Below, piece by piece: positions 4,207 through 46,704 of a stretch of 64,000 bases of DNA (positions within the stretch are counted from its first letter, which is position 1; each line of letters starts with the position of its first letter). The stretch is from Enterococcus sp. 9D6_DIV0238. GTDB taxonomy: Bacteria > Bacillota > Bacilli > Lactobacillales > Enterococcaceae. A model generated the notes under the pieces. That model was not told where the DNA came from and searched no databases. It was given only the letters and a program-made list of their open reading frames with translations. Location: the NCBI RefSeq assembly GCF_002174455.2, contig NZ_CP147246.1:1453501-1517500 (forward strand), given 5' to 3'. Both the position numbers and the translations under genes were made by a program.

Positions 4207-4934
4207 ATCAAACTCTCCCGAATACGTTCATAATAGTTTTCAAAGGTTAGCTGCTGCTCTTTTTTTGGCAGAGTGATTATCTCCTGCATTTGCCCTTTAT
4301 CCAATATAGCCACTCGGTCACATAGATACTTGATCAAATTTAATTCATGACTGACAACGACCATCGTTGTCCCGAATGTTTGATTGATTTCTCTTAGCAG
4401 TTCCATAATGTCAGAAGCATTTTGACCATCTAAAGCAGAAGTCGGTTCATCACAAAGCAGAATCTCCGGATCAGTGATCAGCGCACGCGCGATACCAACA
4501 CGTTGCTTTTCACCACCACTTAGTTGTTTCGGATAATGGTTTATTTTATCTTCCAAACCAACAAATTCAAGAACTTTCTGAATTTTATGTGCGTCATACG
4601 TCTTATTTAATCGTAAAGGCAAGCTCACATTTTCCTTGACCGTTTGATTGTAGAGTAAATTGAACTGCTGAAAAATCATTCCAACTTTCTTACGGCTTTT
4701 TCGTTTTCCCGCTTCACTCAGTATCACGATATCTTGACCAGCGATCTTTATTTCCCCTTGATCAGGTAGTTCTAATGTGTTGATCATCCGCAGTAACGTT
4801 GATTTCCCCGAACCGCTTTCGCCAATTACACCGAATATTTCATGATCATTGATCTTTAGAGTAATATCTTTTAAAGCAGGTATCACCATATTTTTATGAT
4901 GATAATTTTTTGATACACGTTCAAATGTTATCAT
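4203..4934 (-). CDS. MetN-like ABC transporter ATPase lacking the C-terminal NIL domain
   Basis: A 243-residue ATPase with Walker A GESGSGKST, Q-loop FQQFNLL, signature LSGGEKQRVGIARAL, Walker B ILLCDEPTSALD and switch His in VVVSHE. Standard MetN is near 340 residues and ends in a NIL (C2) domain that binds methionine and inhibits transport. This protein stops soon after the ATPase core, so that feedback sensor is absent. It sits between lipoate ligase (16 nt upstream) and the permease (4-nt overlap). Confidence 0.9.
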   Translation of the reverse strand: MITFERVSKNYHHKNMVIPALKDITLKINDHEIFGVIGESGSGKSTLLRMINTLELPDQGEIKIAGQDIVILSEAGKRKSRKKVGMIFQQFNLLYNQTVKENVSLPLRLNKTYDAHKIQKVLEFVGLEDKINHYPKQLSGGEKQRVGIARALITDPEILLCDEPTSALDGQNASDIMELLREINQTFGTTMVVVSHELNLIKYLCDRVAILDKGQMQEIITLPKKEQQLTFENYYERIRESLI

Positions 4935-4949
4935 TTTACTTCCTCCGGT

Positions 4950-5963
4950 TTAATCTACCAAGAGCTGGATAAATTCCGCTTTCGTTATATTATTAAAATA
5001 CTCATTGATTGAAATCGGCTTTAGTCTTTGCTCGATTGCGCCACTCTTATATTCGCAACCAACCAACAGCACTTCTATATCCTTAGTATCCTTTTGGCTA
5101 AAATAATCACCATAAATTGTGATAGCTGCTATACGTCCTTTTTCTACAGAGATATTAGCTTCTATAAGGCCGCCCTTGAATTTTTCTTCTCGCTTGATCG
5201 TAAATTTAGGTTCCTCTCCAAAAATCCATTCGTCATTTGCATAAATCTCTGCAACAAGCTGATCAATTGCAGCTTCATCTTCTTGTGTCAATAAATACTC
5301 ATGCTCTTTGATTGCATCCAAGGTATCTACTTTGAATAGACGCACCAGTAATTGATCACGAAACTCTTCTGTAGTAAGTGTTTGATATTCCTTAGATAAA
5401 AATGGTTTGAGATTCGTCACACGGCTTCTTACAGATTTTGTCCCTTTTGATGCAAGCTTCTTTTCAGATACAGTCAATACACGACTAACTTCATCAAGAT
5501 TTACATCAAACATCAGCGTTCCATGAGAATACATCTTTTTATTTTTTGTGTACATCGCGTTCCCAGAAAACTTCTTACCATCGATCAACAAGTCATTGCG
5601 TCCACTGATTTCAGCTCCAACAGCTCCCATTTCGTGTAAAGCAGCAATCAAGGGCTCTGTAAACCGTTTAAATTCACCAAATGCTTCATGATCTGCATTT
5701 ACAACAAAGCTAAAACTAAGATTACCTAAATCGTCATACACAGCACCACCACCAGATAGTCTACGTGTGATCGTAATATTATTTGCTTCAGCGTATGATA
5801 AATCAACTTCTGCTCGAACATTTTGATTACGGCCGACAATCACACATGGTTTTTGAATATAAAATAAAATCACTGCTTCGTCAAAGTCTTCTTGGTTCAA
5901 TATGTATTGCTCTGTCGCTAGATTTCGACGAATATCATGTGAAGACATAACTACATAATACAT
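4950..5963 (-). CDS. lplA: Lipoate-protein ligase A
   Basis: A 337-residue cytoplasmic enzyme that activates lipoate with ATP and attaches it to lysine of E2 and GcvH proteins. The N-terminal catalytic domain has the family motif [20 protein letters not shown] (about residues 67-86), the [15 protein letters not shown] region, and a catalytic-lysine segment [19 protein letters not shown]. The C-terminal third is the small accessory domain of full-length LplA. It is the first gene of the unit with the MetNIQ-type transporter, so salvage and uptake may be coupled. Three CATATTTTATA motifs lie upstream. Confidence 0.93.
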
Positions 5964-6047
5964 TTTCTTCCCCTTTTCTATTTAAGTGCTTTCAAAAATA
6001 GTCTATCACTCTCAATCATAAAATTACATATTTTTGCTTATGAAACC

Positions 6048-6133
6048 CATATTTTATAGTGAGAAACCATATTTTATATAACAGAAAAATGAGTTTGAAA
6101 CAGTTTATAACACACAAAAAAACATATTTTATA
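6048..6133 (-). promoter_or_regulatory. Three direct CATATTTTATA motifs upstream of lplA
   Basis: CATATTTTATA occurs at 6048-6058, 6068-6078 and 6123-6133. The first two are preceded by GAAACC and lie exactly 20 bp apart, about two helical turns. This suggests a binding site for a regulator of the lplA operon; no regulator is identified. Confidence 0.4.
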
Positions 6134-6147
6134 CCTATTAAACTATA

Positions 6148-6191
6148 AAATGACACAACAACCAGAAATGAATCTAATTGCTGTGTCATTT
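6148..6191 (-). terminator. Probable terminator of the GA/ChW surface protein gene
   Basis: AAATGACACA (6148-6157) pairs with TGTGTCATTT (6182-6191) around a 24-nt loop. On the minus strand it is followed by TTATAGTTT, a weak T tract, about 60 nt after the stop. Confidence 0.5.
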
Positions 6192-6252
6192 ATTGTCTTA
6201 ACTATTGTATTTAAGCAAGGGCTTTAAAAGGTAGATTTTGGATTATTAAGGT

Positions 6253-9200
6253 CTATTTTTTCTCTACTAAACGGATTTGGACAGCTTCCATTCGTAGTGA
6301 TTTTCCTGTTGTTCCAGCTATTGTTCCATTTGAAACATATTTTTGCCAGCCGATATCTTTCACATGAGCACGATACTCAACATTATATTTCTCAGCTAAT
6401 TCGCCTGTTAATTTGATTTGGATAGCTTCCATTTGTAATGACTTTCCTGTTGTTCCAGCTATTGCTCCGTTTGAAACATATTTTTGCCAGCCGATATTAC
6501 GAACATGAGCACGGTATTCGATGCCACCTTCAAGCTTCTTCGCACCCTCAGGCATATCAACGTCTGCCAAGTTGATTTTTACTGCCTCAAGCGCAAGCTT
6601 TCTACCAGTTGTCCCAATGATTTCATTCATATCAACTGTCTTTTGCCAACCAATCTTGCTTACATGACCAGTCCCTTTGATAGTTGGTGCTACTTTTTGT
6701 GCATCTTCTAATTGCTTTTGTAGCTTAGCTTTTGTTTCCGCATCACGGATTCTTTCAATCGTTTTTGCCGCTGCTTCAAATTCCTTTGCTTTGATTTGAA
6801 GTGTAACAATATCGATCAAATCTTTGTCATGTGCAAGATTGTCTGCTTTGACTAGTTCAGCTACAGCTTTTTCTACTGCTGATTTTGTTGTCAGTTTAGA
6901 AACCTTTTCTTTAGCTGCAATCTTCTCTTCTGCACTTAAGTTTTCTAAAGCATCGATTTGCTTGTTTGCTTCAGCTTTCGCTGTTGCTAAGGCAATACTT
7001 TCGTCTAATTTTGCTTGATATTCTTTACGAATGCTGTCTGTTCTTAATTTGTTGATCTCTTTTTGTGCTTCCACAAAAGAACCAGACGCAATCAATTTGG
7101 TGATATTATTAACTGTTGCTTTATCAGCTACTCTATTATTTTCAGCTTTAGCTTCGTTGTAAACAGCAACCATATCTGCTTTTTTCTCAAGCGCATCTAC
7201 ACGGTTTTTATATGCTAACTTCTGAGCAGCAGACAATTCATCTAATAAATCGATCTGAGCTTTAATAGTTGCTTTAGCTGATGCCTCGTTAGCATTTTCT
7301 ACTGCACGATCAGCAATCAATTGCTTCACTTTTATTGTAAGATCAGCTACTTCAGCTTTTGTTTTACAGTCAATTGCTTCGGAGATCAAGGATTTTTTAT
7401 CTTCAGCTGTTAGTTCTGCTGAGTTATTGATTTGATCCACTAGCTCTTTTTTTGCATTTTCAAATTCTGTTTTTTCTGTTTCCAGATTAGTATTTTCAGT
7501 ATTTGCTCTATTCAATACCTCAGCAACAGCAGCTGCATCTTTAGCATTTGTTACTTCTGCTTTGTAGCCATTTTTCATTTCTTGTGTTAAATAAGTCAAC
7601 GCATCAATTTCTGCTTTTGCATCTGATTTTGTTTTTTCAAGAATTTTAGCCTCTTCGTTAGCATCTGCGTTCTCTTGGTCCATTGTTTTCGCTAAATCTA
7701 ATACATTTGTCACTGCATCTTTATTTGTTGCTTTAGCAATATCTTTAAGTGCAGCATCTCTTTGTGCTACTGTTAAGTTTTCCAATTTATTGATTGCCTC
7801 TTTAGCTATCGTTTTAGCTTCTTCTAATTCAACCTCTGCATTAGCAACGCCTGCTTTATAATCGTCGTAAATGGCTTTATTCAATAATGCTGTGATCGCT
7901 GCTGAATCTGTCGCTGCATCAATAGCTGTTTTGGCGCTAGCTTTAGCTGCGTCAGACAGATAACCTAACGTATTTACTTTTACTTTTGCAGCCTCTTTTT
8001 CTGCAGTCAATGCTTTAGCCGCGTCTGCTTCTTTAGCTGTTTTCACTAACTCAGCAATTTCTGCTTTGTCATCTGTTGCTTCTACAGCATCTGTCTTCGC
8101 CTTCTTCTCAACTTTTGTTAAGTTAGTAAGTGCATTGATTTCTTTGATAGCTTGATCTTTGATGGCTTTTAATTCAGCTGCATTCTTTTCTACAGCTTTA
8201 CGTTCTTCGGCTTGTGCTGAGGTAACGATAGCAGCAACTTCTTCCGATGTTTGAGCTAATTCTACATCTTTTAGATAGTTCGCTTTTAAAGTTGCATCGA
8301 TCGTCATTAGTCCTCCAATCAATGAAGTCGCTGCACTTTTAGCTTCTGCAAGCTCTTTTCCTTTGATTGAAGCTGCAGCAACAAATGATAGCCAGTCTGC
8401 TTTTACTACTGCAACAGCCTCAAGTGTTTTGGCAGAATCGATTCTGCTATTAAATGCACTTACATCTGCATCAGTAATTTGCTGATTTGTTTTTTTCTCA
8501 TTGGCAATTTCAGCTTTAAGTTCAGATTTTGCTGCATTTAATTTTGCTGATTGATCATTCGCTGTAGCATCTGCTATTGCTTTTTCGATCTCGCTAGTTA
8601 GAGCATTTAATTTTGCTAATGCTGCATCACCCGATTCTGCTGCTGCAGCATCGATTTTCGCATCAAGTTCTGTTTGTTTTGACGGATTCAACAAGGCTAA
8701 TTTCGCTGTTTCTACTTTTAATTCTGTAACCTTAGTTGTCACTGCAGTTGCTAATCTTGCTTCATTTTCAGCTTTTGCGCCAGTTACGATCCCATCGATC
8801 GCACCCTTATCTTCAGCCTTATCAATCTCTGTATAAAAATTTTGTTTTTCAATTTCTTGTAATTGGCTCAAGCTGCTGATCACATTCTTTTGCTCTGCTT
8901 TATATTTTGGAAGATCTGCAAGTGCAGCATTCAGCTCGACATTTTCTTTTACTAAAATATCAGCTGCTTCTTTATTTTTAGCTAGCTGTTTATCAAATGC
9001 TTCTTTAAAGGTACTATATGTTGTCGAATCAGCAATTGCATTGAAAGTACTTTTTAATGAGTCAAGTGCTAATGCTGTACTAATAGCATTTTTAGCAGCT
9101 TCTTTTTGAACTGTTGATAACGAGGTTAAACCATCGATTTTACTAACATACAGAGCATCTACGACTTTTACAGCTTCTGCAATATCTTCTCTATATGCCT

Positions 9201-9549
9201 TTAATAACTCTTCTTCAACTTTTTCTTTTGTATCTGATTTCTGCACATCTGCCACATATGTTGCTTTTGCTTCTGGTGTCAATGAAACTAATGCATTGAT
9301 ATTTGTCGTTGCTTGTTCAATCAGCTCTAAAAGCTCATTATCTACAGCTCTTGCTTGCGCTGCTATAGCATCTGTTTGTTCTGCATCAGACACAGCCAAA
9401 ACTGCAACTGGACTCAATGCATTAAGTAACAATCCTAATACGACTGGTGCTACTACCCATTGTTTTTTTCTCTTGTACATCTTGTAGATTTTTTTTGTGT
9501 TGCTTTCAGGACTTAAATCGTCTTTTCTGAAATTTTTGTTGCTCTTCAT
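6253..9549 (-). CDS. Large wall protein with GA-like three-helix repeats and three C-terminal ChW repeats
   Basis: A 1098-residue secreted protein. The N-terminus has a long signal peptide with KKIYKMYKRKKQWVVAPV, a KxYKxGKxW-like motif, then a hydrophobic core ending near AVLAVSDA. About residues 60-890 form many alanine/lysine-rich three-helix modules of the GA/FIVAR kind (repeating A-K-x-x-I-x-x-L-x-x-L-T). The last 150 residues hold three ChW repeats (hydrophobic, conserved Gly-Trp: GHVSKIGWQ, AHVRNIGWQ, AHVKDIGWQ) with AGTTGKSL cores. No LPXTG motif or terminal membrane helix exists, so retention would depend on ChW or other wall binding. The start at 9549 follows TTTTGGAGG; an earlier in-frame ATG lacks a ribosome site. 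The 5' end faces integrase cassette 1, which probably controls it. Confidence 0.85.
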   Translation of the reverse strand: MKSNKNFRKDDLSPESNTKKIYKMYKRKKQWVVAPVVLGLLLNALSPVAVLAVSDAEQTDAIAAQARAVDNELLELIEQATTNINALVSLTPEAKATYVADVQKSDTKEKVEEELLKAYREDIAEAVKVVDALYVSKIDGLTSLSTVQKEAAKNAISTALALDSLKSTFNAIADSTTYSTFKEAFDKQLAKNKEAADILVKENVELNAALADLPKYKAEQKNVISSLSQLQEIEKQNFYTEIDKAEDKGAIDGIVTGAKAENEARLATAVTTKVTELKVETAKLALLNPSKQTELDAKIDAAAAESGDAALAKLNALTSEIEKAIADATANDQSAKLNAAKSELKAEIANEKKTNQQITDADVSAFNSRIDSAKTLEAVAVVKADWLSFVAAASIKGKELAEAKSAATSLIGGLMTIDATLKANYLKDVELAQTSEEVAAIVTSAQAEERKAVEKNAAELKAIKDQAIKEINALTNLTKVEKKAKTDAVEATDDKAEIAELVKTAKEADAAKALTAEKEAAKVKVNTLGYLSDAAKASAKTAIDAATDSAAITALLNKAIYDDYKAGVANAEVELEEAKTIAKEAINKLENLTVAQRDAALKDIAKATNKDAVTNVLDLAKTMDQENADANEEAKILEKTKSDAKAEIDALTYLTQEMKNGYKAEVTNAKDAAAVAEVLNRANTENTNLETEKTEFENAKKELVDQINNSAELTAEDKKSLISEAIDCKTKAEVADLTIKVKQLIADRAVENANEASAKATIKAQIDLLDELSAAQKLAYKNRVDALEKKADMVAVYNEAKAENNRVADKATVNNITKLIASGSFVEAQKEINKLRTDSIRKEYQAKLDESIALATAKAEANKQIDALENLSAEEKIAAKEKVSKLTTKSAVEKAVAELVKADNLAHDKDLIDIVTLQIKAKEFEAAAKTIERIRDAETKAKLQKQLEDAQKVAPTIKGTGHVSKIGWQKTVDMNEIIGTTGRKLALEAVKINLADVDMPEGAKKLEGGIEYRAHVRNIGWQKYVSNGAIAGTTGKSLQMEAIQIKLTGELAEKYNVEYRAHVKDIGWQKYVSNGTIAGTTGKSLRMEAVQIRLVEKK

Positions 9550-9692
9550 TAACCAATACCTCCAAAATATTTTTTTAAATACCAAAATCAATTAGTATCC
9601 ATTCAAAGTAAAATAATGGACACGACCAAAAAAATCCATATAATAAAGTACAGAACATAAATAGATCAGGACGTATCCAGTTCGTTTTTCAT

Positions 9693-9717
9693 TTCTTCTT
9701 TTTTGTAGGAACAAGAA
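9693..9717. repeat. Cassette 1 left recombination core site (IR-L1)
   Basis: Inner arm GAACAAGAA (9709-9717), spacer TTTGTAG (9702-9708), outer arm TTCTTCTTT (9693-9701). Inner arm and spacer are the exact reverse complement of IR-R1; the outer arm differs from the expected TTCTTGTTC at two positions. It lies 144 bp upstream of the GA/ChW gene start. Confidence 0.8.
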
Positions 9718-9758
9718 AGAAGTTTTTTTAGCTTGTCCTTCAAGTTCTAAAAACTTTA

Positions 9759-9777
9759 TGACGGCTAAGCTGACGGG
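9759..9777. promoter_or_regulatory. Cassette 1 left arm-type motif pair (TGACGGC, 12-bp period)
   Basis: TGACGGC at 9759-9765 and TGACGGG at 9771-9777. The same spaced pair occurs at the other end of this cassette and at both ends of cassette 2. Phage and Tn916-type integrases bind such accessory sites through an N-terminal domain; this protein has a comparable N-terminus. Confidence 0.6.
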
Positions 9778-9799
9778 TATTAAATAACGTATAACATAA

Positions 9800-9844
9800 A
9801 AAAATGCTGAGCACACATCTAAATTAAAGATGTTCTCAACATTT
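9800..9844 (-). terminator. Terminator after integrase 1
   Basis: AAATGCTGAG (9802-9811) pairs with CTCAACATTT (9835-9844) with one mismatch, and ACATCT pairs with AGATGT inside; on the minus strand TTTTTTTAT follows. It would stop integrase transcription before the surface gene. Confidence 0.75.
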
Positions 9845-9852
9845 ATTATCTA

Positions 9853-10944
9853 TTAAATTGCTGCTATTTTTTCCATTGCTTTACGCTCATCTTGCATAAA
9901 TGAACTCGTATAAACATCTAAGGTCATTTTTGTAGAGGTATGCCCAAGTATTGAACTTATCGTAGCGATATTTACACCCAACTCTAAACAACGGGTAGCA
10001 AAAGTATGACGCAGAGAGTGGAAAGGCAATGGAGTGATTTTAAGCTCTTCTTGTAACTTTTTGAAGCGATAAGTAATCGTCCTTGGTTCAGTACATGAAT
10101 CTTTTATGCCAACAACATATGGACTATGTGATGTCTTTTTTACTTCTGTCAAATATTCTTTTAGTTGATTTGATAACGGTAAGACTCTTTCTGATTGAAA
10201 GGTTTTGGGTGTTCCTTCAATTAGAGCCGTTTTTCCTAAGCCAACTTGCAATCGTTGCAACGTTCGTTGAATATGAATGGTCTTTTCAGAGAAATCAATA
10301 TCAGTCCATCTCAATGCACTAATTTCGCCAATACGCATCCCTGTTTCTAGAGCAATAAGAATAGGTAAATATTTTTCTTCTTTGATAGTTGCTGCTTTAA
10401 TCATTTTCTGTTGTTGCTTTGAAAAAGCTTTGACTCTCTGCTTTTCTAATTTGGGTAACTCAATCATGAGTGTTGGATTTTTACTTATTAATTCCTGTTT
10501 CAATGCTTGAGATAGAGCATTTTTTAATACTCTGTGAACTGCATGCACAGAACTCGAAGAAAGCTGTTTATTTAATTGTAATAACCATTGATCAATATCA
10601 GTGGGTAATAATTCTTTTAAGAGAATCGTTCCTATATGAGGCAATATGTGTAATTGTACTTTGCTTTTATAGCCATTGTAAGTACTCAGCTTAACCCTAG
10701 GTTTTACAATAGTTTCTAGCCAAAGTTTTAACCAATCACCTAATGTACCATCGTACGCGATCTGTAAGTCATCGGATTTCAACGTTTGAGCTTTTACAAG
10801 CATTAACTTTTTTTTAACATCTACGTATTTTCTAGAATAAATATATCCATAGCGGATTTTCCCGTCGACCTTTCTTTCTTTAATATATCTTCCTTCCCAG
10901 CGTCCGTCTTTTCGTTTATATATATTTTCCCCTCTTTTAGCCAT
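9853..10944 (-). CDS. Tyrosine site-specific recombinase (integrase 1)
   Basis: A 363-residue recombinase. Residues 1-55 (MAKRGENIYKRKDGRWEGRY onward) form an arm-binding-type N-terminal domain, 60-160 a SAM-like core-binding domain, and 180-355 the catalytic domain. Catalytic residues visible are R204 (TGMRIGEISALRW), K near 247, H309 and R312 (FHSLRHTFATR), H335 (LGHTSTKM) and nucleophile Y345 (DVYTSS). All are intact. GAGGGA precedes the ATG at 8 nt. It has no excisionase or other phage or transposon genes beside it, and it is enclosed by inverted core sites. I infer that it inverts its own segment. It is a paralogue of the integrase at 45333-46433, which has the same domain layout and nearly the same first 20 residues. 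Confidence 0.92.
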   Translation of the reverse strand: MAKRGENIYKRKDGRWEGRYIKERKVDGKIRYGYIYSRKYVDVKKKLMLVKAQTLKSDDLQIAYDGTLGDWLKLWLETIVKPRVKLSTYNGYKSKVQLHILPHIGTILLKELLPTDIDQWLLQLNKQLSSSSVHAVHRVLKNALSQALKQELISKNPTLMIELPKLEKQRVKAFSKQQQKMIKAATIKEEKYLPILIALETGMRIGEISALRWTDIDFSEKTIHIQRTLQRLQVGLGKTALIEGTPKTFQSERVLPLSNQLKEYLTEVKKTSHSPYVVGIKDSCTEPRTITYRFKKLQEELKITPLPFHSLRHTFATRCLELGVNIATISSILGHTSTKMTLDVYTSSFMQDERKAMEKIAAI

Positions 10945-10974
10945 TATAAAATCCCTCTTTCATTTTCCAATTTG

Positions 10975-10993
10975 TGACGGCGTATTTGACGGC
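10975..10993. promoter_or_regulatory. Cassette 1 right arm-type motif pair (TGACGGC, 12-bp period)
   Basis: TGACGGC at 10975-10981 and 10987-10993, 31 bp upstream of the integrase 1 ATG. Its place suggests that integrase binding here could also affect its own transcription. Confidence 0.6.
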
Positions 10994-11217
10994 TTTGAAA
11001 AAAACATTAGCTAAACCTTGATTTAGCAGTATTCATAAAGCTATCTATACCCATTCCCAATTTTTCAGGGGAGAATTTTTCATTCATAAATCGTCAAAAT
11101 ACAAAATAGATGCATTTTTTCATTATTCTATACGAGTTGCAGAATAACATTATGAACGTTCTTTAATAACATAAAAGATCAAGACTATTTTTATAAAACC
11201 AATTGCAGCAATACCTA

Positions 11218-11247
11218 TTGACAGTATCCATACTTAAATAGTACAAT
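11218..11247 (+). promoter_or_regulatory. Strong outward promoter inside cassette 1
   Basis: TTGACA (11218-11223), 18-bp spacer, TACAAT (11242-11247), reading rightward toward IR-R1 about 70 bp away. No plus-strand gene follows in this orientation. After inversion it would read leftward across IR-L1 into the GA/ChW gene. Confidence 0.75.
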
Positions 11248-11316
11248 ACTAGGTGTTGAATGAATAAATATGTTTATAAAACCAACATTTTTTATTCATC
11301 AAAATTTAATTCTCAT

Positions 11317-11341
11317 TTCTTGTTCCTACAAAGAACAAGAA
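11317..11341. repeat. Cassette 1 right recombination core site (IR-R1)
   Basis: TTCTTGTTC (11317-11325), spacer CTACAAA (11326-11332), GAACAAGAA (11333-11341): two perfect inverted 9-bp arms around a 7-bp spacer, typical of a tyrosine-recombinase crossover site. It is the inverted partner of IR-L1. The 260 bp to its right are A/T-rich and I see no gene there. Confidence 0.85.
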
Positions 11342-11603
11342 ATTTTTTATATTAAAATTCTACCTACGTTAAACCATTTCTTCTTTTATGCATTTTTCAT
11401 TTCTTAGCAGATTAGTAAATTACTCCCCCTAATTAAATTTATTCCATCTTTCCATACCATACTCACAATATACCTTGTTTATTCAATTGATGTTTTACTA
11501 TCACTCTCCCTATTTTATAAATACGCAATTTTATTACTTTCCTATTTTTTGTGTATCATTTTTATGGTATCGCATTCTAAACCACTTTTCTATTTTATTT
11601 TTC

Positions 11604-11660: not shown

Positions 11661-13094
<1,434 letters not shown>

Positions 13095-28835: not shown

Positions 28836-30032
28836 TTATTGGTATGGATCTTCTTTTACTAAATTGATGATTTGATTGAAGGCTTGCTCAGATTCTTCCT
28901 TCACATCTTTAATACGTTTGTAGTAGTTTTGGTATTCTTGCTCTGCACGTTCCAAACGTTTTAAAACTCCAGCTTTTCGCTTAGTTTCTTCATTGATCAT
29001 TTGTGCTCTTTGATTTGCCTGATTAATAATTTCTTTGGCTTGTTTTTTCGCTTCAAGTAACACTTCGCCAATGTCTTCTTTCGATAGTTGGTTATCAACA
29101 TCGATCGTTTTTTGAGCTAATTGACGTTTCGTCGCTTCCAGTTCCTGACGAACTTTCGCTAGCTCTTCATAGGTAGCTGAATCAGTTGGTGTATCAGAAG
29201 CCATGATCACGATCCGATCTTCTGAAAGCTTATCGATTTCTTCTTGTTTCGCTAATAATTCTTGCTCATACTGACGAACTTTATTTGCAAAACGCTCTGC
29301 CTTTTTACGATTTAGGTCATTCTCATCAATTTGGCGGTTGCTTTCACGTAACAAGCTGTTGTATTTACTTTTTACTTGCTCCAATTCAGCCATACGCGCA
29401 TCGTAATCTTTCGGCACAGCTTGAACCATTGATAATTCATTTTCTAATGACTCATTTACTTGCTGAGCAGATTCAACTTCACTTTGTAATTGCGTATTTT
29501 CTCTCTTACTCTTACGCAACTCAGCTTTCAATTCACGAAGTTCATTTTGAAGCTGCAGATTTTCTTCTTGAAGCTCTTCCAACTCTTCATCGTCGATCAC
29601 TTCATTAACAGGTGGTCTTTTTTTCGTTGGCTTAGCTTTTCTAGGCGCTGATGCCACTGGTGCTGCTTTTTTCTTTTTTAAAGAGAATAATGAACGTGGT
29701 TCATCTTCGTCATCATCATAATCTTCATCGTCATCGTAGTCGTCATAATCTTCGTCGTCATCGTAGTCGTCATCGTAGTCGTCATCATCATAATCTTCAT
29801 CATCATAATCTTCATCATCATAATCTTCATCATCATAATCTTCATCATCATCGTAGTCGTCGTCATCATCATCGTCATAATCTTCGTCGTCATCGTAGTC
29901 ATCATCATCGTAATCTTCGTCATCATCGTAGTCATCATCATCATAATCTTCGTCATCGTAATCTTCGTCGTCATATTCATCGTAATCTTCATATTTTTTT
30001 CTTTTTTTACCTTTACCAAAAATCTTTAGCAT
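28836..30032 (-). CDS. Asp/Tyr-rich coiled-coil protein, first gene of the envelope operon
   Basis: A 398-residue cytoplasmic protein. Residues 1-13 are basic (MLKIFGKGKKRKK); about 14-115 are almost only Asp, Tyr and Glu in DDEDYDDDDYDDD-like repeats; 120-145 are basic and Pro/Ala-rich; 150-395 form a long coiled coil (ELEELQEENLQLQNELRELK). The tail KKQAKEIINQANQRAQMINE resembles the C-terminal helix of DivIVA/GpsB-type and other division coiled-coil proteins, but the N-terminal DivIVA motif is absent. GGAGG lies 10 nt before the ATG. The acidic repeat is encoded by a GAT/GAC/TAT tract prone to length change. Confidence 0.75.
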   Translation of the reverse strand: MLKIFGKGKKRKKYEDYDEYDDEDYDDEDYDDDDYDDDEDYDDDDYDDDEDYDDDDDDDYDDDEDYDDEDYDDEDYDDEDYDDDDYDDDYDDDEDYDDYDDDEDYDDDEDEPRSLFSLKKKKAAPVASAPRKAKPTKKRPPVNEVIDDEELEELQEENLQLQNELRELKAELRKSKRENTQLQSEVESAQQVNESLENELSMVQAVPKDYDARMAELEQVKSKYNSLLRESNRQIDENDLNRKKAERFANKVRQYEQELLAKQEEIDKLSEDRIVIMASDTPTDSATYEELAKVRQELEATKRQLAQKTIDVDNQLSKEDIGEVLLEAKKQAKEIINQANQRAQMINEETKRKAGVLKRLERAEQEYQNYYKRIKDVKEESEQAFNQIINLVKEDPYQ

Positions 30033-37396: not shown

Positions 37397-38497
37397 TTAT
37401 CTTGCAGTTGTTTTCTTTCTATTTCCTTTTTTCTTCTTATTTTTCATTTTCTTTGTTTGAATAGAACGAACAATAATAAAGATAATTACAACAACAGCAA
37501 TGATTCCACCCACGATCATCGCAATCAATTTCCAATCGATCCCGCGTTCTTGTGTTAATGAAACATCCTGTCCATTAAATTTATCTGCTTCTTCATCGGT
37601 AATAGTAAAGTCTTCTGTCCATTCCCATTTTTTGTCATCCGCTGTTACTAAAATGTGTGCTTTATAATCGCCTGCTTCCATACGATCTCCATTCATTTCA
37701 ACGGGAAAATCGATCAAGTTATTAGGCCCCATGCGCATACCTGCTTTTTTAGTGTCGTACAAAACTTCTTCTGACCCTTTTTTCATGACTTGCACATCAA
37801 CAGTCATGTTTTCAAGGTAGGCAGGTTGAACATTAGAAAAATTAACAAATACAGCATTTCGATAATTTGCTAGACCAGCATATACTTTATTCAATTCAAG
37901 ATTTGGTTCAACAACGTTATCATTTTCGCTTAAAAGCATTCCTACTAAGTAAGCATATTCATTTGTGATCCCTGTTTTTTTCTTTGCTTCCTTATCTTCT
38001 TTTACCTGTTGTTTCAATTGAATACCACCTGAAATGAAACCATTAAAATCAGATGCCGGCATCGTTATATCCAACTTTAATGGAACCATTGTTTTTGGTG
38101 GAATAACAACTTCTTTAGGTCCTTTAACGATATCGACAAAATCATATTTCAAAGACTTATCTTTTTCGATCGCTGATGGACCGTATTCGATAACACCATT
38201 TCCGTTGGTCTTTGCACCATTTAGTGAGACACCGATCGTGATTTCCTCATCAGAGCCGTTTGCCAATTCAATTTCCACAGTCTGCTTTTGTCCAGCACTC
38301 ATTCGTAAGTCGAAGTAACCGACACTAGTGCGCTGATTCTCAGGTTTCACAACTTTATAGGTAAAACCTAAGCCAAGATCTGCTGCTTGTTGATCAGCGG
38401 TCTTATTGTTTTCATCGGCAAAAACATTAACAGAGAATCCAAGACCGAAAACTATGTATGTGAGTAGTGCTAAGTAAGTGATTAGTTTCTTTTTCAT
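37397..38497 (-). CDS. DUF916/DUF3324 cell-surface protein, WxL partner
   Basis: A 366-residue protein. Signal peptide about 1-30 (MKKKLITYLALLTYIVFGLG); DUF916 domain (about 40-160, LGFTYKVVKPENQRTSVGYF, FDLRMSAGQKQTVEIEL); DUF3324 domain (about 170-310, NEYAYLVGMLLSENDNVVEP, LENMTVDVQVMKKG); a C-terminal helix (about 328-350) and a basic tail. Proteins of this pair of domains occur with WxL proteins and are thought to hold them at the wall or membrane. The ATG at 38497 fits the signal peptide; the ribosome site GAGGAAGGG is somewhat far (about 12 nt). Confidence 0.9.
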   Translation of the reverse strand: MKKKLITYLALLTYIVFGLGFSVNVFADENNKTADQQAADLGLGFTYKVVKPENQRTSVGYFDLRMSAGQKQTVEIELANGSDEEITIGVSLNGAKTNGNGVIEYGPSAIEKDKSLKYDFVDIVKGPKEVVIPPKTMVPLKLDITMPASDFNGFISGGIQLKQQVKEDKEAKKKTGITNEYAYLVGMLLSENDNVVEPNLELNKVYAGLANYRNAVFVNFSNVQPAYLENMTVDVQVMKKGSEEVLYDTKKAGMRMGPNNLIDFPVEMNGDRMEAGDYKAHILVTADDKKWEWTEDFTITDEEADKFNGQDVSLTQERGIDWKLIAMIVGGIIAVVVIIFIIVRSIQTKKMKNKKKKGNRKKTTAR

Positions 38498-38535
38498 GAA
38501 TGTTGTAAATCCCTTCCTCTTGATGTTAAAACAAG

Positions 38536-38556
38536 TCACCGGCTTTACGCCGGTGA
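38536..38556 (-). promoter_or_regulatory. GC-rich intercistronic hairpin in the WxL operon
   Basis: TCACCGGC and GCCGGTGA pair around TTTAC. It is between a WxL gene and the DUF916 gene; on the minus strand CTTGTTTTAA follows, a weak T tract. It could be a leaky terminator or protect the upstream mRNA end, raising WxL protein over its partners. Confidence 0.6.
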
Positions 38557-38598
38557 GCCTGTTTCTACATATTTAATCACAGTTGTTCAAACTGCTTT

Positions 38599-39363
38599 TT
38601 ATAATGTGTCTGATAATGTCCAAGTTACTGTAGCATTATATGCTGCAGTACGAACGTCAACAGATGCTGGGATGTCGATTACTACAGAGTTTCCGTCTGT
38701 ACCTTTTTCATCGTCACCAAATGTTACTTCATAACGACCTTTACCGCCATTAGGATCAGTGTTTGTGTAAACTGGTAATGAACCGCTTGTTTCAGAGATT
38801 GTTTGTACGCCAGTTCCATCACCAAATACTTTTTTATCGTTAGCTGGTTGTAAGTCTGGGTTAAGAGTAGCTGCTACATCGATATTTTTGTATGTTAATG
38901 TTGCTCCAGCTAAAGTTACATCTGTTCCATCAACAGTTGCAGTAAATTGTTTAGTTAATGCTGCTGATAATTTGTATGTGTGATCAACAGTAGAACGAAC
39001 ATCTTTGATCGCTACATAGTTTTCTACGTTATACTCATCAGCATTTCCTTTGTTCGCTACGTGAGGTGCAGCTTCATATTGTTGCGCGCCTACTACTGCA
39101 GCGTGAGCTTTGAAGTCCAATGGAGTTACAGCAATGATCCCAAATTCGTCAACGTGAGTTGGATCGATGTCAGTACCAGTATCGACTGGACGAGTACCAG
39201 TTGGGTCAGTCATTGTTGTATCTTCAGAAGTATTTTTTGTGAACTCGATGTCAGCAGTTCCGTTTCTAGTTCCTTCTAAGGCTTGTGTTGCACTTGGAGC
39301 AGCTACTGCTACGCCTACTACTGCTAATAAAGCAGCTCCGCATAATTTGTGTGTTAATTTCAT
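38599..39363 (-). CDS. WxL-domain surface protein (254 residues, first Trp missing)
   Basis: A secreted protein with signal peptide (about 1-29, LAVVGVAVAAPSATQALEGT). The body has the WxL protein layout: an N-terminal Asp/Thr-rich part and a C-terminal WxL domain. The distal motif is complete (YNATVTWTLSDTL) but the proximal one reads HTYKLSAALTK, with Tyr where the domain is named for Trp. WxL domains attach non-covalently to peptidoglycan. A cluster of WxL genes with DUF916 next to it is typical of Enterococcus. AGGAGG precedes the ATG. Confidence 0.88.
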   Translation of the reverse strand: MKLTHKLCGAALLAVVGVAVAAPSATQALEGTRNGTADIEFTKNTSEDTTMTDPTGTRPVDTGTDIDPTHVDEFGIIAVTPLDFKAHAAVVGAQQYEAAPHVANKGNADEYNVENYVAIKDVRSTVDHTYKLSAALTKQFTATVDGTDVTLAGATLTYKNIDVAATLNPDLQPANDKKVFGDGTGVQTISETSGSLPVYTNTDPNGGKGRYEVTFGDDEKGTDGNSVVIDIPASVDVRTAAYNATVTWTLSDTL

Positions 39364-39397
39364 GTGTGTTTCCTCCTAGGTTTTGTTTGTGTTACAT

Positions 39398-40201
39398 CTA
39401 TGGTAACTCGGCTATAATCCAAGTTAACACCGTTGAATAGGGTACCGGATCACGTTTAGTCGCTCCCGGTATGCTTAATGTGACTGCACTGTTTTCATAC
39501 ACTTGCTGATTACCAAATGCTGCATCCAGTACAGGTTCGTCCTTTAATAAACGTGGACTTAACGTTGACGCAATGCTGTTTTTATTATCAGCGGATGCGC
39601 CGAATGAAATGCTCCAAGTTCCAAAACCGGTGCCTTGTTTAGCCTCTGCTAAATTATAGGTTTCTCCGATATTGCTTAGTCGAATGATCTCTTTAGAGAC
39701 GATCGGTGCTTCGCTTTGATCACGCGTCGAGTTGACCCATGATTTATCGAAAGAAATCACCGCACCGTTAAGTTCCGGATTTTTTGCTGTTTCATTTCTA
39801 AATTGTGATTCTTGACGTACCTGCAATGTCCAGCCTTGTTGACCGCCTCTATAATCAGAAACTTGAACAAAGTTTCCTCTAGGTTTCGTGCCGTCTTTAA
39901 ACAACTGTGCATTCACCGGGTATGTCATATCTTTGTTTGTGATTGCATACTTTCCAAAATTCAATTGTGGAACAAAGTCGATTCGTAGACGACCTTCTGT
40001 ACTTGGGCTAGGCCCAGGATCGACGATCGTTCCGGGATTTTCCGGATCATGAATCCCTTCTTCATCTGGAATTTCAGTTAATTCAATCGCTGCGTTTCCT
40101 TCTGTATTATCTTCTACCGCATATGAGCAATCTGGTAGTAATCCAGCTGTGAGTCCGATCGAAAGAAGTAGCAAGGTTGAATAGATTCTGTTCTTTTTCA
40201 T
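39398..40201 (-). CDS. WxL-domain surface protein (267 residues)
   Basis: A secreted protein: signal peptide about 1-29 (ending SYAVED), a Pro/Glu-rich stretch (about 40-70), then a WxL domain with both motifs: QGWTLQVRQ and STVLTWIIAELP at the C-terminus. It is between a short sortase-type protein (4 nt upstream) and the second WxL gene (34 nt downstream). Attachment to peptidoglycan through the WxL domain is expected from the family. Confidence 0.93.
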   Translation of the reverse strand: MKKNRIYSTLLLLSIGLTAGLLPDCSYAVEDNTEGNAAIELTEIPDEEGIHDPENPGTIVDPGPSPSTEGRLRIDFVPQLNFGKYAITNKDMTYPVNAQLFKDGTKPRGNFVQVSDYRGGQQGWTLQVRQESQFRNETAKNPELNGAVISFDKSWVNSTRDQSEAPIVSKEIIRLSNIGETYNLAEAKQGTGFGTWSISFGASADNKNSIASTLSPRLLKDEPVLDAAFGNQQVYENSAVTLSIPGATKRDPVPYSTVLTWIIAELP

Positions 40202-40204
40202 TCC

Positions 40205-40552
40205 TTAACTCCCTTCTTTCTGTTCATCGTTGTCTTTTTTCCGCTTCCAGAAAAAGACAATTGCTGCAATAATGACTAAAGCTGCACCACTGATCGATAA
40301 ACTTTTCTTTACTAACTCGCCAGTTGAAGGATACTTGCCGACTGGTTTTGTGATCTTAGGTGTTGAATCAGAAGTTTTCGGTTCGGTCGTCGGCTCTGTT
40401 GTTGGTTTAGTTTCTTCATAGAACCCGATTTCTCCGTTCGTCTGAATCCCACCGCCATTGCCTTCCCCTTCAGCTTGTGCACTGATTGGATGAATTGTAA
40501 AAAGTGATACACATGCAATGGAGAACAAGACCAAAGATTTTAAATTTTTCAT
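40205..40552 (-). CDS. Short sortase-substrate-like surface protein of the WxL locus
   Basis: A 115-residue protein: signal peptide (about 1-27, ending ISAQAEGE), a Thr/Pro/Glu linker (TKPTTEPTTEPKTSDSTPK), a sorting region KYPSTGE, a hydrophobic helix (SISGAALVIIAAIVFF) and a basic tail KRKKDNDEQKEGS. The motif is YPSTG rather than LPxTG, so sortase A use is uncertain. Small LPxTG-like proteins are common in WxL operons. An in-frame TTG one codon before the ATG has the better spacing to GGAGG (8 against 11 nt). Confidence 0.82.
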   Translation of the reverse strand: MKNLKSLVLFSIACVSLFTIHPISAQAEGEGNGGGIQTNGEIGFYEETKPTTEPTTEPKTSDSTPKITKPVGKYPSTGELVKKSLSISGAALVIIAAIVFFWKRKKDNDEQKEGS

Positions 40553-40572
40553 CAATTGTTATTCCTCCATTT

Positions 40573-44211: not shown

Positions 44212-44337
44212 TATTTTCCTCCTTTCCTCAAAAATCATTGTGCTAAAAAACGCACGAATATATTTCAATTTTCTGACCAAAAGCTACATTAAGCGTCTAG
44301 TCAAAAAAGAGAAAACTGATTTAATTGGGAAACTTAC

Positions 44338-45036
44338 TCACATAGATAACATGTATCCTCTTGAGCGAACTGTTCGAATATACTTTGGCTTAAATGGATC
44401 GTCCCCAAGTTTTTTTCTAAGGTGAAAGACCAAATTAGAAATGCGATATTTGCGATCTCCTTTTTCGTCTCCCCAAATTGCCTGATACATCTCTTCATAA
44501 GAAACGGCATCTCCTTTACGCCGAACCAAAATCTCCATCGCTTGAAATTCCAATTTTGTCAGACTAACTTCCCCTTTGGCTTCAACATTGACAGCAAAGT
44601 TATTAGGGATCAGTTCAATCGGAGCCAATTCTTCTTGATCTGTCTGTATCACGTCAGTTTTAGCCGGCTCACTCTTCTTAACTCTTCGCTCCAAAGTCGT
44701 CCCAACATAGATTCCAAATTCATCTGGATCAATCTGATCATCGAAAATACCATCCGACCCTAATTGTAGATAGACAATCCGATTGATCTTTGTTGATGCT
44801 TCAGAAAGCACCCAAATAAATCTGTCAGTCATGCTTCTAATCTTAATGATCAACTCACACGTTTCACCAATTTCTTCTAAAGAAGATTCCTTGATAATAA
44901 TTGCATCCATTGTACTGATCGTTTGATCTAACTCACTAGGTTCAAAATGATGTAGCTCATATTGCTTATCTTTTAATACTCCTATGTATCGCGAATTCTC
45001 AATCTTTTCATGATTGATTACTGCTATGTTAAACAT
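44338..45036 (-). CDS. OmpR/PhoB-type winged-helix regulator heading the WxL locus
   Basis: A 232-residue protein. Residues about 1-125 look like a degenerate receiver domain (no clear phospho-Asp pocket: VINHEKIENSRYIGVLKDKQ, MDAIIIKESSLEEIGETCEL); about 150-230 form a PhoB-type winged helix (VSLTKLEFQAMEILVRRKGD, YEEMYQAIWGDEKG, ISNLVFHLRKKLG, YIRTVRSRGYML). No histidine kinase gene is adjacent, so it is an orphan. It precedes the large WxL gene by 126 bp in the same direction. Its 5' side faces cassette 2, 190 bp away, making it the probable target of that switch. The ATG follows AAGGAGGAAG. Confidence 0.88.
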   Translation of the reverse strand: MFNIAVINHEKIENSRYIGVLKDKQYELHHFEPSELDQTISTMDAIIIKESSLEEIGETCELIIKIRSMTDRFIWVLSEASTKINRIVYLQLGSDGIFDDQIDPDEFGIYVGTTLERRVKKSEPAKTDVIQTDQEELAPIELIPNNFAVNVEAKGEVSLTKLEFQAMEILVRRKGDAVSYEEMYQAIWGDEKGDRKYRISNLVFHLRKKLGDDPFKPKYIRTVRSRGYMLSM

Positions 45037-45227: not shown

Positions 45228-45253
45228 TTCTCGTTCTATATAGGAACGGGAAA
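45228..45253. repeat. Cassette 2 left recombination core site (IR-L2)
   Basis: TTCTCGTTC (45228-45236), spacer TATATAG (45237-45243), GAACGGGAA (45244-45252) plus one A. It is the exact 26-bp reverse complement of IR-R2 (46679-46704). The arms resemble those of cassette 1 (TTCTTGTTC). Confidence 0.9.
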
Positions 45254-45295
45254 CTTCCAAATAAACCCTCATAAAATAGGATGTTACCCAATCTT

Positions 45296-45314
45296 TGACG
45301 GCTTACTTGACGGC
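45296..45314. promoter_or_regulatory. Cassette 2 left arm-type motif pair (TGACGGC, 12-bp period)
   Basis: TGACGGC at 45296-45302 and 45308-45314. The distance from the core spacer (53 bp) is close to that in cassette 1 (51 bp). Confidence 0.62.
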
Positions 45315-45332
45315 GAATTTGTAATTTAGAGA

Positions 45333-46433
45333 TTAGATACAGGTGATCGATTCCACTGCTAAACGCTCTTCATTTAGATTGGAATTCGTGTAGATATCTA
45401 ATGTCATTTTTGTAGAAGCATGTCCCATTAGTGAACTGATAACTGCAATATTGACTCCTTTTTCTAAACAGCGTGTTGCGAAGGAATGACGAAGTGCATG
45501 GAACGAACATCTTGGGAGATTTAAAGCCTTTAGTAACCGATTAAACTGATAACGAATCGTTCGAGGTTCTATGAATTTTGCACCTCTAGAGACAACATAG
45601 ATACTCTTACTTGTTTTTTTTGCTCTCATCAATCGTTTTACTAGGGCTGTCGATAAAGGTATTATCCGTTCTGATGTATCTGATTTTGGTTTTTCTTCTA
45701 TAATATGGGTTCTAAACTCACCATTGGAAAGAGTGCTTACTCTTTGTAATGTTCTTTGTACGGAAATCGTTTGATTTTCAAAATCTACATCGCTCCATTT
45801 TAATCCGGAAATTTCACCAATCCTCATTCCAGTTTCTAAAGAAAGTAATACTGGTAACCCGTCTGGAGATTTTTTTGCCGCTTTTACTAATCGCTTGTGT
45901 TCTGAACGATTGATCGTAATGATCTTCGTTTTTTTTATTTTAGGTAACTGAATGTTTTCATATAATGATCTACGAACAAAATTCAATTTTTCCGCATATT
46001 TCAAAGCTGTTTTTAGCACTCTGAATACAGCATGAAGTGAGCTAGTTGATATTTTCTCTTTTGTTTGATCAATAAAATTCTCGATTTTTGTTGATGTCAA
46101 TTCGGACAAAAATATTTCACCTATAGCAGGTCTGATATGACAGTCTATTTTGCTTTTGTAGCTGTCTAAAGTACTTGGTTTGACTTGTACAGCTGCTACT
46201 GATTCTAACCAATAATCCAGCCAATTATTTACTGTCCCGTAAAAACGTTCAGTTGTATTAAAATCTGAGAAAGTTGTTGCTTTTTTTATAACTAACTTCT
46301 TTCTCACTTCTTTATAGCTGGTCGAATAGACGTACCCATAATAAATAGAGCCATTTGCACGTCTTCCTTTTATATACCTCCCCTCCCAACGTCCATCTTT
46401 TCGTTTATAAATATTTTCTCCCTTTTTAGCCAT
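45333..46433 (-). CDS. Tyrosine site-specific recombinase (integrase 2)
   Basis: A 366-residue recombinase, paralogous to integrase 1. N-terminal arm-binding-type domain MAKKGENIYKRKDGRWEGRY (1-55), core-binding domain (60-160), catalytic domain (180-358) with R204 (TGMRIGEISGLKW), H312 and R315 (FHALRHSFATR), H338 (MGHASTKM) and Y348 (DIYTNS). All catalytic residues are present. The ATG at 46433 follows AGAGGAAG; a longer in-frame reading has no ribosome site and would cross the arm motifs. There is no phage or transposon gene beside it. Enclosure by inverted core sites suggests that it inverts its own segment and so switches transcription toward the WxL regulator. Confidence 0.92.
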   Translation of the reverse strand: MAKKGENIYKRKDGRWEGRYIKGRRANGSIYYGYVYSTSYKEVRKKLVIKKATTFSDFNTTERFYGTVNNWLDYWLESVAAVQVKPSTLDSYKSKIDCHIRPAIGEIFLSELTSTKIENFIDQTKEKISTSSLHAVFRVLKTALKYAEKLNFVRRSLYENIQLPKIKKTKIITINRSEHKRLVKAAKKSPDGLPVLLSLETGMRIGEISGLKWSDVDFENQTISVQRTLQRVSTLSNGEFRTHIIEEKPKSDTSERIIPLSTALVKRLMRAKKTSKSIYVVSRGAKFIEPRTIRYQFNRLLKALNLPRCSFHALRHSFATRCLEKGVNIAVISSLMGHASTKMTLDIYTNSNLNEERLAVESITCI

Positions 46434-46458
46434 AGGTGATCTTCCTCTCTTTAAAAAT

Positions 46459-46477
46459 TGACGGCTACTGTGACGGC
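46459..46477. promoter_or_regulatory. Cassette 2 right arm-type motif pair (TGACGGC, 12-bp period)
   Basis: TGACGGC at 46459-46465 and 46471-46477, 26 bp upstream of the integrase 2 ATG, matching the layout of cassette 1 (31 bp). Confidence 0.62.
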
Positions 46478-46553
46478 TAAAAATAAACAATTTTTTCTCA
46501 ATTTTTTTAAATATAATCAAAAAAATTGATAAGTTTTCCTTTTATAAATGAGT

Positions 46554-46559
46554 TATAAT
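46554..46559 (+). promoter_or_regulatory. Possible outward -10 element in cassette 2
   Basis: A perfect TATAAT reading rightward. TTGATA lies upstream (46526-46531) but at 22 bp, too far for an ordinary promoter. Weak candidate for the counterpart of the cassette 1 outward promoter. Confidence 0.3.
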
Positions 46560-46678
46560 GATTTTGCTACCAAGTTTTTATCTTTTTTGATATATTTCGC
46601 ATTAAAAACTCTAGATTGTTTTTTTTAATAAAAGAAATTCTTCTAAAAAAAATATTATTTTGATTTTAGCCAATAACA

Positions 46679-46704
46679 TTTCCCGTTCCTATATAGAACG
46701 AGAA
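46679..46704. repeat. Cassette 2 right recombination core site (IR-R2)
   Basis: T plus TTCCCGTTC (46680-46688), spacer CTATATA (46689-46695), GAACGAGAA (46696-46704). Exact inverted copy of IR-L2. Two 9-bp arms around a 7-bp spacer. Confidence 0.9.

What the first reader, a model, noticed from the sequence alone, without database searches (positions are those of the whole stretch)
9693..11341. Self-encoded invertible switch beside the GA/ChW surface gene, assembled in the OFF orientation
Seen: a tyrosine recombinase gene between inverted core sites (arms GAACAAGAA and TTCTTGTTC around a 7-bp spacer), and a near-consensus promoter (TTGACA, 18 bp, TACAAT at 11218-11247) near the right core site, pointing right into a gene-free region. 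The surface gene starts 144 bp left of the left core site and has no comparable promoter there. Inference: recombination between the inverted sites turns the promoter toward the surface gene. The recombinase gene travels inside the segment, so the switch carries its own inverting enzyme.
Basis: partly seen in the sequence, partly recalled or inferred. Interest (0 to 1): 0.93.

Follow-up and report, generated by a model that had tools for sequence, protein, structure and literature searches.

The report
Self-flipping surface-gene switches in enterococci
This is a 1.65-kb piece of an Enterococcus genome that carries a recombinase gene and a predicted outward-facing promoter between two matching inverted sites; it is predicted to flip and so turn a neighbouring surface-protein gene on, and it belongs to a large family with several copies per genome, a few of whose loci are found in both orientations in related bacteria.

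Summary
A 363-aa tyrosine recombinase (9853-10944, -) lies between inverted core sites (9691-9718 / 11316-11343, 26 of 28 paired, identical 7-bp spacer TTTGTAG). TTGACA-18-TACAAT near the right site points away from the surface gene. Across six species cores and promoter hexamers are nearly invariant, while most other DNA inside the segment drifts. Of 148 copies with inverted repeats, 125 have a good outward promoter on the same side. Relatives have inverted: three sets of orthologs hold the segment in opposite orientations, with breakpoints on the repeats in the closest pair. For this locus 6 of 6 orthologs share the predicted OFF orientation, so flipping here is inferred. Spacers differ between modules of a genome (45 of 45 examined), match within a module (119 of 122) and change together (54 of 54 pairs), which fits private, non-cross-reacting switches. 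Invertible promoters are known; this self-encoded, arm-site-bearing, multi-copy form in Bacilli is a new variant as far as my searches reach.

The parts
9691..9718 (+). left core site: mismatched outer arm, spacer TTTGTAG 9702-9708, inner arm GAACAAGAAA
   Evidence: 26 of 29 columns of 9691-9719 invariant in six species
11316..11343 (-). right core site, inverted copy with the same spacer (11326-11332) and perfect arms; followed on the + strand by a T run, so also terminator-like in this species
   Evidence: 26 of 28 columns invariant, 0 of 17 just outside
9853..10944 (-). tyrosine recombinase (363 aa), inside the segment
   Evidence: PF14659 + PF00589; R204, H309, R312, H335, Y345 invariant in A1
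9759..9777 (+). paired arm-type motif TGACGGC / TGACGGG, 12 bp apart
   Evidence: family-wide motif
10975..10993 (+). paired arm-type motif TGACGGC / TGACGGC, 12 bp apart, just upstream of the recombinase start
   Evidence: 18 of 20 columns of 10976-10995 invariant
11218..11247 (+). predicted invertible promoter TTGACA-18-TACAAT, facing out of the segment and now away from the surface gene
   Evidence: all 12 hexamer bases invariant in six species
11190..11203 (+). copy 1 of direct repeat TTTATAAAACCAAY flanking the promoter (possible operator)
11273..11286 (+). copy 2 of the same direct repeat
9617..9644 (+). promoter-like TGGACA-16-TATAAT in the surface-gene leader, reading into the segment; would read the recombinase in the flipped state
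   Evidence: 12 of 12 hexamer bases invariant; the leader around it is conserved too
6253..9549 (-). predicted target: surface protein with KxYKxGKxW signal, GA modules and three ChW repeats
11661..13082 (-). non-target neighbour, GH1 family glycosidase, its 3' end facing the module
45228..45253 (+). second module: left core site, spacer TATATAG
   Evidence: 26 of 26 paired
46679..46704 (-). second module: right core site
45333..46433 (-). second module: paralogous recombinase, 50% identical
45296..45314 (+). second module: paired arm-type motif TGACGGC x2
46459..46477 (+). second module: paired arm-type motif TGACGGC x2
44338..45036 (-). second module: predicted target, Trans_reg_C regulator at the head of a WxL surface cluster (37397-44280)

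Best explanation
The segment 9691-11343 carries its own tyrosine recombinase and a predicted outward promoter between inverted core sites, and is likely a DNA-inversion switch that would turn the neighbouring surface gene on when flipped. Shown by sequence: site geometry, recombinase, arm-type motifs, conserved promoter hexamers, no promoter match in front of the target, and opposite orientations of related modules between their repeats. Inferred: the recombinase binds the TGACGGC arm motifs with its N-terminal part and the cores with the rest, and swaps strands within the 7-bp spacer. The sequenced orientation would be OFF: transcription from 11218-11247 leaves to the right and meets the core hairpin with its T run. 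In the flipped state the same promoter would read through the left core into the surface gene, with a leader of roughly 230 nt. A private spacer per module would keep the many paralogous switches of a genome from recombining with one another. A promoter-like site in the target leader (9617-9644) would read the recombinase only in the flipped state and so may drive ON cells back to OFF; this is the least certain step.
For: Sites and recombinase. Footprint over six species: cores 26 of 29 and 26 of 28 columns, -35/-10 12 of 12, arm motifs 18 of 20 and 15 of 21, against 52 of 151, 6 of 38 and 5 of 72 in stretches between them and 0 of 17 just outside the right core. Family: inverted repeats of score 22 or more in 107 of 184 copies against direct repeats in 5 of 184. 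Opposite orientations in ortholog sets: L144/L156; L148 against six loci; L074/L080, at about 91% identity, with both flank alignments ending on the repeats. Outward promoter score of 9 or more in 125 of 148 modules, against 22 inward, and 8 outward and 21 inward on the other side. Promoter towards the target in the gap before it in only 6 of 101. Arm motif in one orientation upstream in 140 and downstream in 136 of 148, reverse orientation 3 and 3, chance 3.0 and 2.6. Spacers identical at both sites in 119 of 122 and in both members of 54 of 54 syntenic pairs whose spacers differ, this locus included (TTTGTAG to TTTGAAG at both sites in L117).
Against: No inverted form of this locus was found: 6 of 6 orthologs have the same orientation. 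Within E. raffinosus, 4 of 4 strains at one module (L217-L220) and 2 of 2 at another (L222, L043) also agree. Module 2 has no strong outward promoter (score 7.3, z -0.2), nor have L148 (8.2), L185, L180 and L136 in the group that contains the flipped L148. Not only cores and promoters are conserved: leader stretches are too (54 of 68, 35 of 46 and 24 of 46 columns). The sets were chosen by having repeats, which favours identical spacers. 40 of 188 copies have no or weak repeats. The reset promoter is enriched only modestly (31 of 101, mean z 1.03). The terminator idea is weak: T runs beyond the non-target core in 56 of 118, but also in 41 of 118 control stretches further out, and the T run at this locus is absent in L115-L117. 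No expression or read data were available.
Confidence: 0.84

Rival explanations
1. Decayed or locked switch: the module inverted in an ancestor but this copy no longer flips, so the surface gene is simply silent or is transcribed another way.
For: 6 of 6 orthologs in one orientation; two mismatches in the outer left arm in all six; related recombinases without repeats or arm motifs exist.
Against: The recombinase frame, both cores, arm motifs and promoter hexamers stay conserved while stretches between them drift, and L117 changed its spacer at both sites. Mismatched outer arms are common in the family: outer halves identical in only 55 of 122 modules.
Confidence: 0.1
2. Remnant of a mobile element: the recombinase is an integrase of a stripped element and the repeats are its ends, with no regulatory role.
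For: The recombinase is of the phage/transposon integrase kind (PF14659 + PF00589); the closest solved structures are listed as 'Int protein' (6emy, 6emz); arm-type sites also exist in integrative elements (recalled).
Against: Sites are inverted, not direct; no cargo; 21 syntenic groups over species; outward promoter in 125 of 148; a regulator on the same side in 91 of 93 modules with one; opposite orientations seen.
Confidence: 0.03
3. Polarity reversed: the sequenced orientation is ON, with the target read together with the recombinase, and flipping turns it off.
For: The recombinase points towards the regulator in 91 of 93 regulator modules, so the two could be co-transcribed.
Against: No inward promoter enrichment in front of the recombinase (22 of 148, mean z -0.09) against 125 of 148 outward; a promoter towards the target in its own gap in only 6 of 101.
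Confidence: 0.08

Closest known systems
Hin-type switch (Salmonella flagellin), recombinase gene within the invertible segment
   Same: Self-encoded invertase with a promoter in the segment; a passage of PMC5903667 cites Hin as a recombinase located within the segment.
   Different: Hin is a serine recombinase (recalled); here a tyrosine recombinase with arm-type motifs, in many copies with private spacers.
Clostridial inverton group 139 with invertase group 35 (PMC11892184; section 8 and search passages seen)
   Same: 33 invertons, 32 from Clostridia, with a tyrosine-type recombinase close by; my family also reaches Clostridia (26 of 148 modules).
   Different: Whether the recombinases are the same could not be tested (supplements not readable). 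That paper reports a median of 0 invertons per genome in Bacillus-like Firmicutes.
FimB/FimE (E. coli) and RecV (C. difficile) invertible promoters
   Same: Recombinases turning promoters of surface loci (passages of PMC11868660 and PMC5903667).
   Different: One enzyme, RecV, serves several switches (passage of PMC5903667) and the enzyme genes lie outside the segments (recalled); here one enzyme inside each segment.
Tn1549/Tn916-type integrases
   Same: Closest solved structures by profile: 6emy, 6en0, 6emz, E about 1e-25 (the listing says only 'Int protein', the Tn1549 label is recalled).
   Different: No conjugation genes or transposon inside; sites inverted rather than at element ends in direct orientation.
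L. plantarum msa promoter inversion (PMC8493755, passages seen)
   Same: Promoter inversion controlling a surface adhesin in Lactobacillales, mostly in one orientation in ordinary culture.
   Different: An inversion in the msa promoter region (234-bp upstream region analysed); the passages seen name no dedicated recombinase (RecT is only suggested).

Membership tests
Invertible-promoter (inverton) phase switch | Inverted repeats flanking a promoter next to a target gene | tested here: met
   (promoter by sequence and conservation only)
Invertible-promoter (inverton) phase switch | Both orientations occur at this locus | tested here: inconclusive
   6 of 6 orthologs, the window included, in one orientation, one assembly per species; no reads available to test a population. 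I claim that it works like, and is related to, modules found in both orientations, not that this copy has been seen to flip
Invertible-promoter (inverton) phase switch | Both orientations occur at other loci of the same recombinase family | tested here: met
   L144/L156, L148 group, L074/L080
Invertible-promoter (inverton) phase switch | Orientation-dependent expression | not testable with these tools
   no RNA data
Tyrosine recombinase | Integrase catalytic domain with R, H, R, H, Y | tested here: met
   PF00589; R204, H309, R312, H335, Y345 invariant in 24 sequences; roles of the residues recalled
Hin-type serine invertase switch | Serine recombinase | tested here: not met
   the Pfam domains found are those of tyrosine integrases
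Integrative mobile element | Direct att repeats and transferable cargo | tested here: not met
   repeats inverted, the recombinase the only sizeable gene inside
Clostridial inverton group 139 / invertase group 35 | Sequence membership of the published groups | not testable with these tools
   supplementary tables not readable

The most novel reading that the evidence does not exclude
These enterococci carry a bank of about 6-13 (in relatives 19 or more) independent self-contained switches. Each has its own recombinase and a private 7-bp spacer 'barcode', and most sit in front of a surface-locus regulator or adhesin. All but a few are OFF in sequenced isolates. Flipping to ON puts the recombinase under a promoter in the target leader, so ON is a self-limiting pulse. 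Together they would give a combinatorial surface code that surveys of cultured Bacilli have missed.
Probability: 0.33. Interest if true: 0.86.

Novelty: new variant of a known kind. Interest (0 to 1): 0.74.

Why it matters
Two published surveys found few invertible segments in Bacilli (a median of 0 per genome in Bacillus-like Firmicutes, PMC11892184; one signature among 22 Bacilli samples, PMC5903667; passages seen). Here one genus holds 192 related recombinase copies in 22 genomes, and of 184 unique copies tested over all taxa 107 have inverted repeats at a score that direct repeats reach in 5. If they flip only in a natural niche, surveys based on reads from culture would miss them. The set also gives a natural experiment on how many tyrosine recombinases share a genome without mixing their sites, and ready-made candidate modules for non-cross-reacting inversion.

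Tried and rejected
Core doubling as a terminator in the OFF state: T runs differ between the two sides (56 of 118 against 12 of 118), but control stretches further out on the same flank are almost as T-rich (41 of 118; A against its control p = 0.036), and core hairpin energies do not differ (p = 0.13, 119 modules). Kept only as a suggestion. Operator search: the promoter-flanking repeat TTTATAAAACCAAY has exact matches only at its two places in the window; at up to 2 mismatches 4 are found and 3.83 expected. Scan of viral contigs for the left core: 0 hits. Within-species flips in E. raffinosus: none, L217-L220 and L222/L043 agree. Rfam: no match at the gathering score. tRNA genes: none in the window. 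Near search of plasmids with the module's DNA: no match. Literature: the listings shown (each the top 3-20 papers of a larger or equal number) held no description that I could see of this enterococcal family; Jiang et al. 2019 is not held and was not read.

Rows dropped: of 219 recombinase hits in fetched loci 188 were unique and 184 had enough flank. At score 16 direct repeats reach 32 of 184, so some of the 148 are probably false (L149 looks so); the tandem arm motifs can themselves inflate that control. One search did not list all of its 192 matches, and I fetched 104 regions besides the loci. The regulator profile was built from up to 60 proteins on the OFF side, which leans towards that side. 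The gene-neighbour classes come from a simple ORF finder.

Full report
What is there. Between 9691 and 11343 two copies of a 28-nt site stand in inverted orientation (26 of 28 paired). The 7-bp spacer TTTGTAG and the inner arm GAACAAGAAA are identical in both; the outer arm of the left copy has two mismatches. The 17-mer of spacer plus inner arm occurs exactly twice in the 64-kb window. The only sizeable gene between the sites is a 363-aa tyrosine recombinase on the - strand. TTGACA-18-TACAAT (11218-11247) points right, out of the segment. The surface gene 6253-9549 starts 141 bp left of the left site, and the scan lists no - strand promoter there.

(1) A second module in the same window: recombinase 45333-46433 (50% identical) between perfect 26-nt inverted repeats 45228-45253 / 46679-46704 with another spacer, TATATAG, beside a Trans_reg_C regulator and a WxL surface cluster. 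(2) Paired TGACGGC motifs, 12 bp apart, on both sides of each recombinase, all on the same strand although the cores are inverted. They look like the arm-type sites of lambda- or Tn916-type integrases (recalled). (3) A promoter-like TGGACA-16-TATAAT at 9617-9644 that reads into the segment.

Conservation. Five orthologs (L113-L117; recombinases 94, 87, 78, 75 and 76% identical) have the same anatomy. In the six-way alignments invariant columns are 26 of 29 (left core), 26 of 28 (right core), 12 of 12 (-35 and -10 of the outward promoter, against 9 of 18 in its spacer), 18 of 20 and 15 of 21 (arm motifs) and 12 of 12 (hexamers at 9617-9644, with 13 of 16 between them). Leader stretches are also well kept: 54 of 68 from -10 to the right core, 35 of 46 and 24 of 46 on either side of 9617-9644. 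The rest drifts: 52 of 151 between right arm motifs and promoter block, 6 of 38 and 5 of 72 around the left arm motifs, and 0 of 17 directly outside the right core. All six loci have the same orientation. In L117 the spacer is TTTGAAG at both sites, 1.6 kb apart.

Family. In the genus of the window's relatives 22 of 22 genomes searched have 6-13 copies each, 192 in all at E up to 1e-70. In the family 37 of 105 genomes have copies, up to 19, which is also the number scored per genome; 68 have none at that threshold. I collected 188 unique copies. Of 184 with enough flank, inverted repeats across the recombinase reach score 20 in 125, 22 in 107 and 25 in 69; direct repeats, as a control, in 11, 5 and 0. 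The 148 copies with score 16 or more were used below; 122 are from Lactobacillales and 26 from Clostridia. Median module length is about 1,550 bp.

Opposite orientations. Comparing the outer flanks, 90 module pairs match on both sides in the same orientation and 8 in the opposite one. The 8 fall into three cases. L144 (OFF) and L156 (ON): segment in parallel, both flanks inverted; one flank alignment ends on the repeat, the other stops about 275 bp short. L148 (ON) against L136, L180, L185, L195, L205 and L212 (OFF): both flanks inverted; in the two of these pairs looked at in detail the flank alignments stop short of the repeats. L074 (ON) and L080 (OFF), from Clostridia assemblies about 91% identical: both flank alignments end on the repeats. 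L030/L031 agree on one flank only. So modules of this family have inverted in nature. For the window's module 1 no flipped copy was found. Module 2 shares one adjoining flank with the flipped L148.

Promoter and targets. Between the upstream core and the recombinase start, the best promoter facing out scores 9 or more in 125 of 148 (mean z 2.21 against dinucleotide shuffles; 83 of 148 at p up to 0.05). Facing in it is 22 (10), and on the other side of the recombinase 8 out (6) and 21 in (21). The median distance from -10 to core is 45 bp in those 125. Module 2 of the window is one of the 23 without it, and so are L148, L185, L180 and L136. A simple ORF survey finds 93 modules with the recombinase pointing at a neighbour that faces away (OFF), 8 in the reverse state (ON), 38 with neighbours facing away on both sides, 3 with both neighbours pointing at the module and 6 undetermined. 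A profile of the regulator next to many of them finds it on the OFF side in 91 and the ON side in 2 of the 122 Lactobacillales modules. Of the remaining 29 most begin, by eye, like secreted or surface proteins. The gap before the target has a promoter towards the target in 6 of 101 and one towards the module in 31 of 101 (mean z -0.13 and 1.03). In a flipped module the latter would read the recombinase.

Arm motifs and spacers. CCGTCA on the recombinase's strand occurs upstream in 140 and downstream in 136 of 148 modules, the reverse orientation in 3 and 3, chance 3.0 and 2.6. Of the 40 copies below the repeat cut-off, 21 have no arm motif on either side. Four of those (L007, L131, L120, L152) were looked at: they lie in a similar gene context, by eye at the end of a WxL-type operon, without flanking repeats - the same kind of enzyme without sites. 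The two spacers of a module are identical in 119 of 122, the inner 9-bp halves in 85, the outer in 55. In seven genomes and the window the examined modules of a genome all have different spacers (5, 8, 4, 7, 6, 5, 8 and 2; 45 of 45). The seven genomes hold 63 copies at E up to 1e-70, so 43 of 63 were examined there. In 97 syntenic pairs (21 groups) 54 differ in the spacer, and in 54 of 54 each locus keeps its own two spacers alike. Detection by repeats favours this result. The window's own ortholog group, found by recombinase identity, is free of that bias and agrees (6 of 6).

Mechanism. I conclude that 9691-11343 is a promoter-inversion switch with its own recombinase, sequenced in the OFF state. 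Steps shown: anatomy, conservation, family, opposite orientations in relatives. Steps inferred: flipping of this copy, use of the promoter, arm binding, strand exchange in the spacer, and return to OFF through the leader promoter. The strong OFF bias could come from selection in culture, from rare expression of the recombinase (no inward promoter found) or from the suggested reset. By the ORF survey the Clostridia loci, mostly uncultured assemblies, are 6 ON to 10 OFF against 2 to 83 in Lactobacillales, which hints at culture but rests on rough calls.

Comparison. Invertible promoters are a known kind, and a recombinase within its segment is known for Hin (passage of PMC5903667). Clostridial invertons with a nearby tyrosine-type recombinase have been reported (PMC11892184, group 139 / invertase group 35; section 8 read), and those may be this family. 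Passages of the same paper give a median of 0 invertons in Bacillus-like Firmicutes, and PMC5903667 one signature among 22 Bacilli samples. The listings of my searches (an open-licence library only) showed no account of an enterococcal set. I rate it a new variant of a known kind.

Noticed in passing
window 45228-46704: Second self-encoded module beside a Trans_reg_C regulator and WxL cluster; its outward promoter is not obvious.
   Followed up: yes
L007, L131, L120, L152 around 6001-7101: Site-less paralog of the recombinase, by eye at the end of a WxL-type operon: no flanking inverted repeats, no arm motif. Perhaps a domesticated or decayed form, and a natural negative control.
   Followed up: partly
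L217 against L218-L220, about 4490-11000: In E. raffinosus plasmids the DNA up to about 250 bp before the upstream core is 98.6-99.1% identical, but module and downstream accessory Sec locus only 78-87%: an allele swap beginning near the switch.
   Followed up: no
L221 (LR962555.1 plasmid labelled E. faecalis): A copy of the module with arm motifs and inverted repeats on a plasmid typed as mobilizable.
   Followed up: no
window 11190-11203 and 11273-11286: Conserved direct repeats on either side of the invertible promoter, suggesting a regulator that acts on top of inversion.
   Followed up: partly
L041: Clostridia module whose two flanks carry similar 624-aa open frames facing away on both sides; the switch may choose between two genes.
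   Followed up: no
window 28836-30032: 398-aa protein with a very acidic Asp/Glu/Tyr-rich repeat; by eye, similar acidic proteins are the first gene beside modules L164, L015 and L048.
   Followed up: no
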